Of a stretch of DNA of 36,525 bases, positions 55 through 2,581 are shown piece after piece. The notes under the pieces are model-generated. The model saw only the letters and a list, made by a program, of their open reading frames with translations, was not told where the DNA came from and searched no databases. How positions within the stretch are numbered: position 1 is the first letter of the stretch; the number at the start of each line of letters is the position of its first letter. Made by a program: the position numbers and the translations under genes. The stretch comes from Clostridia bacterium (lineage in GTDB: Bacteria > Bacillota > Clostridia > Christensenellales > Borkfalkiaceae): positions 1 through 36,525 of the forward strand of contig JAGANI010000036.1 of the NCBI GenBank assembly GCA_017624285.1, read 5' to 3'.

Positions 55-82
55 TTGACAAAATTCGGGGGGGGGGTATAAT
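55..82 (+). promoter_or_regulatory. Promoter with G10 tract in the spacer
   Basis: TTGACA at 55-60 and TATAAT at 77-82 are both full consensus and are separated by 16 bp. The spacer is AAATTC followed by ten G residues (67-76). The nuclease gene starts at 111 with a purine-rich site just upstream. Tract slippage would change the -35/-10 distance directly, a known way of phase-varying transcription. Confidence 0.8.
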
Positions 83-110
83 TGTTTTAAAAATAAAAGA
101 GAGATTAATT

Positions 111-824
111 ATGAACGATAAAGATTTAAAATGCCCTATTTGTGGTGAACCTACATATTTAGTATGGGGAAAAAACCCAAGAAAAGACGGATTATGTAAA
201 AAACACGCAGACCAACTATTTAATGAAAAAATAGAACAATGTTCTAATTGCAACAAATGGATTGAAAAAGGTCAAATATGCGATTGTAAAAAGCAAAATA
301 CAGAAGAAGAATTTGAAAAACAAGAAGAAAATAAGTGTTTATTATGTGATGAAGATAGTGGCAAATACTTATTCTGTAAAAAATGCTTTTCAAAATACTA
401 TAAAAAAACACTATTATTAAAGATAAAAGTTGATAGAAATCAAAAATTAGAATTATTAAATGAATCTTACGAAGGTGTTTATACATGTAAAGACGGTCAC
501 ATAGTTAAGAGTAAATCTGAAAGAGATATTGATAACTATCTTTTCGAGCATCAAATTGCTCACGCTTATGAAAAACCTTTAGTTATTGGCAAAGAAATTT
601 TTAAACCAGACTTTTATTTAAAAGATAAAGACGTATATTTAGAACATTGGGGCTATGATGAAAGCAATAAGGAATACACAAATAGGAAAGAATACAAACT
701 GCCAAAATATAAAGAGAAAGGTATAACTTTAATTCAAACACACGAAAAAGATATGCAAGACGTCGAAACATCTCTTGAACTAAAACTAACGAATTATATT
801 ATTGGTGAAATTAACGAAGAATAA
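111..824 (+). CDS. Zinc-ribbon protein with C-terminal PD-(D/E)XK nuclease domain
   Basis: The 237-aa protein has two parts. Residues 8-92 carry three Cys-rich clusters: C8/C11/C29/H32, C44/C47/C57/C59 and C76/C79/C89/C92, the last a clear CxxC...CxxC ribbon. Residues 130-215 look like the PD-(D/E)XK nuclease domain often found on superfamily 1 helicases and stand-alone restriction-type enzymes: SKSERDI with E137, YEKP with E154, KPDF with D167, YLEHWG with E178, then lysines around 196-201. The likely role is metal-dependent cleavage of DNA or RNA, but the substrate cannot be read from sequence. There is no helicase or methylase partner in the window. The stop codon lies in a bidirectional terminator. 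A defence role is only an inference, from the accessory setting and the phase-variable-looking promoter. Confidence 0.75.
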   Translation: MNDKDLKCPICGEPTYLVWGKNPRKDGLCKKHADQLFNEKIEQCSNCNKWIEKGQICDCKKQNTEEEFEKQEENKCLLCDEDSGKYLFCKKCFSKYYKKTLLLKIKVDRNQKLELLNESYEGVYTCKDGHIVKSKSERDIDNYLFEHQIAHAYEKPLVIGKEIFKPDFYLKDKDVYLEHWGYDESNKEYTNRKEYKLPKYKEKGITLIQTHEKDMQDVETSLELKLTNYIIGEINEE

Positions 825-847
825 AAGCGGGGTTACCCCCGCTTTTA
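823..847. terminator. Bidirectional terminator
   Basis: AAAAGCGGGG (823-832) and CCCCGCTTTT (837-846) form a perfect 10-bp stem with a 4-nt loop. The A and T arms give a U tract on both strands, so it can end both the nuclease gene and the convergent gene that stops at 848. Confidence 0.85.
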
Positions 848-1087
848 TTAATAATACTTTGACCAAATTTTTCTATTTTTACCACGATAATTATTTGTAG
901 ATGGACGTCCCAAACTTTTTTCAATATAATCTAGATTAGCTTTATTTTTTGGAATTTGATAACGTTTATCGTCCATTACAACAGTTAATGTTTTTGAATG
1001 GGGTAAACTTGTAACTAAATCAATTCTTCTATCGTAAAGAATTGAAGATACCTTTTCAACCTTTTTAGAACTTACTTTTTTTGGCAT
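848..1087 (-). CDS. Small basic protein, unknown function
   Basis: The 79-aa Lys/Arg-rich protein is preceded on the minus strand by AAGGAAA about 7 nt before the ATG, so translation is likely. No family is recognised. The N-terminus (MPKKVSSKKVEKVSS) is highly basic, followed by a short strand-rich segment and a basic C-terminus. No signal peptide or membrane helix is visible. It is the last gene of a minus-strand series of small proteins and shares its terminator with the convergent nuclease gene. Nucleic-acid binding is plausible from its charge but is not shown. Confidence 0.6.
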   Translation of the reverse strand: MPKKVSSKKVEKVSSILYDRRIDLVTSLPHSKTLTVVMDDKRYQIPKNKANLDYIEKSLGRPSTNNYRGKNRKIWSKYY

Positions 1088-1847: not shown

Positions 1848-1993
1848 TTATTTAGTTCCTGTTTCACGGAATTTTTCAATCATTTCATAAATAAAATAAC
1901 TATTTTGCTGTAATAATTCATCTAAAGTTGCTTTTATGCTAGCATAGTTACTTTAGCAAGTTCTTTACGTTTTGGTTGATAAACATTTGACAT
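1848..1993 (-). pseudogene. Frameshifted small protein gene
   Basis: Read on the minus strand, the frame opens ATG at 1993 after GGAG and codes MSNVYQPKRKELAK, then meets TAA at 1934. The neighbouring frame is open from about 1952 to a stop at 1848 and codes SNYASIKATLDELLQQ and on to ETGTK. One extra A near 1952-1954 would join them into a 48-aa protein with a basic start and an amphipathic helix. This may be a recent mutation, a consensus error in the short A run, or recoding. No family is recognised. Confidence 0.5.
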
Positions 1994-2015
1994 ATTAAAA
2001 ACACTCCAGTATAAT
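1987..2015 (+). promoter_or_regulatory. Consensus promoter of predicted small RNA 2
   Basis: TTGACA (1987-1992) and TATAAT (2010-2015) are both perfect, with a 17-bp spacer, pointing to the plus strand. The -35 box overlaps the start codon of the minus-strand gene beginning at 1993, so the two transcripts would interfere. No plus-strand reading frame follows. Confidence 0.75.
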
Positions 2016-2377: not shown

Positions 2378-2581
2378 TCAATAGCCGAGTCCCTACAAGG
2401 GATTCGGCAACTAAATAAATCCTAAACGGATTTGTGATATTCGTCTAACGACGAGTGATATTGCCTATCGGCAGTGATATTTGCCTACGGCAAGTTAAGG
2501 ATTTATTTAATATAACTTTGGCGTTAGCCAAAATATAACGCAAGATTTATCTTGCATATCACTTTTAGCCACAAGGCTAAA
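2358..2581. repeat. Hairpin array separated by GTGATAT motifs
   Basis: GTGATAT occurs at 2434, 2455 and 2474 (period 19-21 bp), and each copy is followed by a small perfect hairpin (2441-2454, 2462-2473, 2481-2493). Inverted copies (ATATCAC) lie at 2358 and 2556. The array sits between TAAATAAATCCT (2412-2423) and its exact reverse complement (2498-2509). Further hairpins occupy 2384-2408 (10-bp stem), 2417-2433, 2518-2531, 2540-2555 and 2564-2581. No reading frame crosses it. It looks like a non-coding mobile or structural repeat. Confidence 0.7.

What the first reader, a model, noticed from the sequence alone, without database searches (positions are those of the whole stretch)
55..110. G10 tract inside a consensus promoter: likely phase-variable nuclease
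The spacer between perfect TTGACA and TATAAT boxes is AAATTC plus ten G, in AT-rich DNA where such a tract is not expected. Gain of one G gives the optimal 17-bp spacing. This is the arrangement known from phase-varied promoters in other bacteria. It drives an accessory nuclease, a class where switching could limit self-damage or vary defence.
Basis: partly seen in the sequence, partly recalled or inferred. Interest (0 to 1): 0.75.

Follow-up and report, generated by a model that had tools for sequence, protein, structure and literature searches.

The report
Slippery G-run promoter before a nuclease
A run of ten Gs sits exactly between the two control boxes of a nuclease gene's promoter in an uncultured gut bacterium, and dozens of related bacteria share the same design in front of surface-protein genes, so these microbes probably flip genes on and off at random by slipping a G, a habit known mainly from pathogens.

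Summary
It is not chance. The same genome has two more such promoters, both before GH43-like lipoproteins. Across 398 genomes of the same family (Borkfalkia and relatives), 114 TTGAC-n-polyG-TATAMT sites occur in 82 genomes, against 0 for the reversed pattern. Only the own genome and one other of 398 phylum-wide genomes have it.

Targets are mostly exported: 113 of 151 have an N-terminal signal or membrane segment, against 102 of 444 neighbouring genes. Tract length differs in 5 of 8 homologous promoter pairs, while flanks carry 6 indels in 1,142 bp. A second geometry (polyG against the -35) drives a dispersed lipoprotein family with 8-10 G. This matches porA of Neisseria and tp0126/tprL of Treponema, where slippage in a G-run phase-varies transcription.

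The product is a zinc-ribbon protein with a PD-(D/E)XK-like domain related to candidate phage-defence nucleases. It is an unusual, cytosolic target; its homologues lack the G-run. Length variation and expression at this exact locus could not be tested. Known mechanism; new lineage-wide repertoire in commensals.

The parts
55..60 (+). -35 box TTGACA
   Evidence: read directly; consensus scan 12/12 with the -10
61..66 (+). non-repeat part of the spacer, AAATTC
67..76 (+). G10 tract abutting the -10, candidate slippage site
   Evidence: same placement in 114 sites of the family
77..82 (+). -10 box TATAAT
111..824 (+). gene for a 237-aa protein: three Zn-ribbon-like Cys pairs and a C-terminal PD-(D/E)XK-like domain
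   Evidence: ORF, translation, alignment of 10 homologues, PADLOC PDC-S69 3.2e-25 over residues 109-231 and HEAT_CxxC_PD-DEXK 3.3e-10, DUF790 1.3e-4, below Pfam's cut-off
820..849 (+). strong hairpin overlapping and following the stop codon, probable terminator; makes the gene a single-gene unit
   Evidence: fold -19.8 kcal/mol, z -5.8; not called by the consensus terminator scan

Best explanation
The G10 run is a slipped-strand phase-variation switch inside a sigma-70-type promoter. Replication slippage adds or removes Gs, changing the -35/-10 distance (now 16 nt; 11 G would give the optimal 17, 9 G gives 15) and so setting transcription of the downstream gene to different levels in different cells. 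It belongs to a repertoire of such polyG-spacer promoters in this lineage (Borkfalkia-type Christensenellales) that mostly drive surface lipoproteins and other exported proteins. Here the promoter drives a single-gene unit encoding a zinc-ribbon PD-(D/E)XK-type nuclease, probably a candidate defence nuclease. Shown: promoter anatomy, its recurrence and position specificity, target bias, tract-length differences between homologous promoters. Inferred: slippage as the cause, dependence of transcription on length, switching at this locus, nuclease activity and its role.
For: Exact anatomy. Two further G9/G10 promoters in the own genome, before GH43-like lipoproteins. 114 sites in 82 of 398 family genomes, reversed-pattern control 0. 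Only 2 of 398 genomes phylum-wide (own plus one) with a slightly stricter pattern. Exported targets 113/151 against 102/444 baseline; lipobox 46/151 against 23/444. Tract length differs in 5 of 8 homologous promoter pairs (G9/G8, G10/G9, G9/G10, G8/G7, G10/G9) while flanks show 6 indels in 1,142 bp. The same promoter occurs with G8 and G7 on two contigs of one assembly. A dispersed lipoprotein family in G334 has near-identical promoters with 8, 9 or 10 G. Precedent: porA, tp0126 and tprL, with 17 nt as optimum and G9 the commonest length in tprL (PMC7864442; PMC3639595).
Against: No reads, second strain or expression data for this locus. The only same-genus genome searched lacks the gene, and homologues elsewhere lack the tract, so the G-run is not a conserved trait of this nuclease. 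The window's first base is a contig end, so only 54 bases upstream of the -35 are known. Assembled tract lengths in short-read genomes may carry sequencing error. Some homologous pairs have equal tract length (3 of 8). The nuclease is an atypical, non-exported target.
Confidence: 0.75

Rival explanations
1. The polyG spacer is a fixed promoter element: a stiff G-rich spacer, or a binding site for a dedicated regulator, that sets a constant, weak or regulated expression level. Length changes are incidental.
For: Tract length is concentrated at 9-10 G (93 of 114 sites). The position is precise, abutting the -10 in one class and the -35 in another. The organism keeps many such promoters before functionally related genes.
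Against: Total -35/-10 distance is not fixed (13-20 nt), and tract length is not tuned to compensate the non-G part (Spearman -0.16, p 0.08). The tract changes length far more often than its flanks between homologous promoters. Two different placements would both need the same regulator.
Confidence: 0.13
2. The tract is real but of no present consequence here: an inherited or recombined promoter copy next to an accessory nuclease, with transcription from elsewhere, or switching without benefit.
For: Homologues of the nuclease have ordinary upstream regions. The nuclease is not exported, unlike most targets.
Against: The promoter is perfect in both boxes and lies 28 bp before the start codon of a single-gene unit closed by a hairpin. 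A few other cytosolic targets exist (ABC-type ATPases, a glycosyltransferase-like protein).
Confidence: 0.1
3. Assembly or sequencing artefact: the G-run or its length is an error at a contig end.
For: The tract is 66 bases from the contig end. PolyG promoters are enriched near contig ends in other assemblies (11 within 150 bp against 2.2 expected).
Against: Identical architecture in dozens of independently assembled genomes with zero reversed-pattern matches, also in isolate genomes (Streptobacillus, Blautia, Treponema bryantii). Contig-end enrichment is itself expected if tract lengths are mixed in the sampled population, though G-rich coverage loss would do the same.
Confidence: 0.02

Closest known systems
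porA promoter of Neisseria meningitidis
   Same: polyG between -35 and -10; 9-11 G; length sets transcription level (PMC3639595; PMC7864442)
   Different: single outer-membrane porin gene in a Gram-negative pathogen; here a commensal Clostridia lineage with many loci, and at this locus a cytosolic nuclease
tp0126, tprL and tprE/G/J promoters of Treponema pallidum
   Same: polyG within the promoter, mostly 8-10 G, optimum at 17 nt for tp0126, outer-membrane or surface targets, several loci (PMC7864442)
   Different: unrelated lineage; variation and promoter effect measured there, only inferred here
PADLOC candidate defence proteins PDC-S69, PDC-S68 and HEAT_CxxC_PD-DEXK
   Same: C-terminal nuclease-like domain
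   Different: only the C-terminal part matches; the N-terminal Zn ribbons are not covered by PDC-S69, and the models are candidates without a named mechanism
Phase-variable restriction-modification systems
   Same: a DNA-acting, potentially self-harmful or defence protein under stochastic control (named in PMC11868660)
   Different: usually coding-sequence repeats or invertible DNA (own knowledge); no methyltransferase was recognised next to this gene

Membership tests
polyG-spacer phase-variable promoter (porA/tp0126 type) | G homopolymer located between -35 and -10 hexamers | tested here: met
polyG-spacer phase-variable promoter (porA/tp0126 type) | tract length brings the spacer through the 17-nt optimum by single-base changes | tested here: met
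   16 nt now, 17 with one more G; anatomy only
polyG-spacer phase-variable promoter (porA/tp0126 type) | tract length differs among cells or strains at the locus | not testable with these tools
   no reads or second strain; in related promoters length differs in 5 of 8 homologous pairs
polyG-spacer phase-variable promoter (porA/tp0126 type) | transcription changes with tract length | not testable with these tools
   needs reporter or RNA data
PD-(D/E)XK nuclease superfamily | conserved acidic residues E ... (P)D ... E of the active site | tested here: met
   KSxxE, PDF/CDW, Y[IL]E conserved in the 10-sequence alignment
PD-(D/E)XK nuclease superfamily | lysine two residues after the second acidic residue (E-x-K) | tested here: inconclusive
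   the motif reads E-H/Y/F-W/F/I/C; a downstream K might substitute
PD-(D/E)XK nuclease superfamily | alpha-beta core fold | tested here: inconclusive
   single-sequence model has mean pLDDT 36 and is not usable
PDC-S69 (PADLOC candidate defence protein) | match over the whole model | tested here: not met
   only model positions 166-286 of 289 match; related domain, not filed as a member

The most novel reading that the evidence does not exclude
An uncultured, commensal gut Clostridia lineage runs a genome-wide contingency-locus repertoire of polyG-spacer promoters in two geometries, one against the -10 and one against the -35 with an extended -10, that independently switch surface lipoproteins and, in this genome, a candidate phage-defence nuclease. 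The commonest assembled spacings (16 and 18-19 nt) sit one or two slips away from the 17-nt optimum, so the default state would be off or weak.
Probability: 0.5. Interest if true: 0.75.

Novelty: new member of a known kind. Interest (0 to 1): 0.6.

Why it matters
Multi-locus phase variation appears restricted to pathogens, and a 2025 review lists this as an open question that may reflect database bias (PMC11868660). Here the same promoter device appears as a repertoire in uncultured gut commensals, and the search patterns make it directly testable in existing metagenome reads. If the nuclease is switched, it would be a transcriptional, slippage-based control of a single-gene candidate defence protein, which is unusual.

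Tried and rejected
Phage or mobile-element origin of the promoter: the pattern occurs in only 2 of 2.9 million viral contigs; the nuclease has no relative found in viral contigs or phage records and only distant ones on plasmids; the window from about 5 kb on is housekeeping chromosome. Second copy or alternative tract length of this locus in the own assembly: none. Position control with the G-run against the -35: meant as a negative control, but revealed a second class. Structure of the nuclease: unusable single-sequence model, so no fold search was run. Conserved G-run upstream of nuclease homologues: absent. Literature for phase variation in Christensenellales: no paper in the library.

Full report
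OBSERVATION. The window begins at a contig end (G000:C62:1-36525). TTGACA lies at 55-60, AAATTC plus ten G at 61-76 and TATAAT at 77-82, a spacer of 16 nt. No dinucleotide shuffle of the window contains this pattern even with three mismatches. A 237-codon ORF starts 28 bp after the -10 (111-824), and a hairpin of -19.8 kcal/mol (z -5.8) overlaps and follows its stop codon. The promoter, gene and hairpin therefore form a compact single-gene unit.

OWN GENOME. In 1.45 Mb there are 8 runs of G>=8. Three abut a -10 box with TTGAC(A/G) upstream: this one, C19:29896 (G9, 18-nt spacer) and C59:51457 (G10, 19-nt spacer, TATACT). The other two lie upstream of paralogous lipoproteins that by eye resemble GH43 glycosidases (not scored against a family library). 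Two more runs sit just before start codons: C17, G11, and C13, G8.

THE CLASS. In 398 genomes of the same family, TTGAC-N(6-14)-G7-TATAMT matched 114 places in 82 genomes, and the same pattern read backwards matched none. Two genomes of the set coincide in match coordinates or contig length with Candidatus Borkfalkia records (G129:C34 with DXCO01000001.1; G099:C6 with DWXC01000026.1), so the family is that of Borkfalkia, order Christensenellales. A slightly stricter pattern in 398 genomes drawn across the phylum matched only the own genome and one other. Only 2 of 2.9 million viral contigs matched.

A position control with the G-run against the -35 instead gave a second class: 37 places in 25 genomes, reversed control 0. 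Many of these have TGnTATAMT, an extended -10. One genome (G334) carries at least five near-identical lipoprotein genes on separate contigs, each behind such a promoter, plus further copies of the promoter.

TARGETS. For 151 promoters with a readable downstream ORF, 113 products have an N-terminal signal or membrane segment and 46 a lipobox. Among 444 other ORFs in the named-genome loci the numbers are 102 and 23. Detection was by simple rules written for this purpose, applied equally to both groups. Homologous genes keep such promoters across genera, for example an ABC-type ATPase in L043, L045, L059 and L200.

LENGTH VARIATION. Among eight pairs of homologous promoters with flank identity of 84-98%, the tract differs in five, always by one G, while the flanks hold 6 indel events in 1,142 aligned bases. 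One assembly (G327) has the same promoter on two contigs with G8 and G7 and 97% identical flanks; since the flanks differ by a few bases these are more likely copies than alleles. In G334 near-identical promoters have 8, 9 or 10 G. PolyG promoters are also over-represented within 150 bp of contig ends (11 observed, 2.2 expected). Mixed tract length in the sampled population would cause this, but so would loss of coverage at G-runs, so I give it little weight.

SPACING. In 214 non-redundant sites the -35/-10 distance is 15-16 (50) or 18-19 (115), with only 21 at 17. The dip at 17 was noticed after the fact and is exploratory. It would fit a default state one or two slips away from the optimum. 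Spacer length is not held constant by compensation between the G and non-G parts (Spearman -0.16), which argues against a rigid element.

THE GENE. The protein has three zinc-ribbon-like cysteine pairs and a C-terminal domain with conserved E, D and E in the arrangement of PD-(D/E)XK nucleases, though the lysine of E-x-K is not in its usual place. PADLOC matches PDC-S69 (3.2e-25), PDC-S68 and HEAT_CxxC_PD-DEXK centre on this domain. A related domain sits inside UvrD-type helicases. The gene is patchy: 11 of 61 genomes searched, the own one included, have a match, some of them partial. Homologues in other genomes lack a G-run upstream, so the coupling is particular to this genome among those seen. 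The single-sequence structure model was unusable.

MECHANISM. The best reading is slipped-strand phase variation of promoter spacing, as in porA (9-11 G, PMC3639595) and tp0126/tprL of Treponema pallidum, where tp0126 expression is best at a 17-nt spacing and the tprL tract is mostly 9 G within a range of 7-11 (PMC7864442). With 10 G the present state would be submaximal; one more G would be optimal. Why the lineage would switch a nuclease is inference: limiting self-damage or hedging defence are both plausible, and neither was tested.

VERDICT. Observation confirmed; interpretation partly supported. The mechanism is known. What is new, as far as the searched library shows, is the lineage-wide repertoire in uncultured commensals and the nuclease as a target.

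Noticed in passing
L248-L256 (G334, several contigs): Dispersed family of near-identical lipoprotein genes (MKGKKRIS...LMSACG), each behind a promoter with polyG against the -35 and an extended -10; tract 8, 9 or 10 G.
   Followed up: partly
window 2408-2485: Rfam match to Gut-1 RNA (RF01706), 50.9 bits against a threshold of 50, in a region with several small inverted repeats.
   Followed up: no
L001 1210-1220 (G000:C17) and L007 1501-1508 (G000:C13): G11 and G8 runs directly before start codons, one behind a TTGACA; possibly length-dependent translation or leaderless transcription.
   Followed up: no
L003 1501-1594 (G000:C59): Two G10 runs on opposite strands, with 74 bp between them, upstream of one lipoprotein gene; only one run is in a recognisable promoter.
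   Followed up: no
L061 (G083:C3): Two polyG-spacer promoters (G13 and G9) about 88 bp apart before the same membrane-protein gene.
   Followed up: no
L095, L116, L121, L132, L153: Tandem paralogous exported-protein genes, each with its own polyG promoter, in Streptobacillus and uncultured Bacilli.
   Followed up: partly
window 1987-2015 and 2954-2982: Two further perfect TTGACA-17-TATAAT promoters without a G-run in the accessory first 3 kb of the contig.
   Followed up: no
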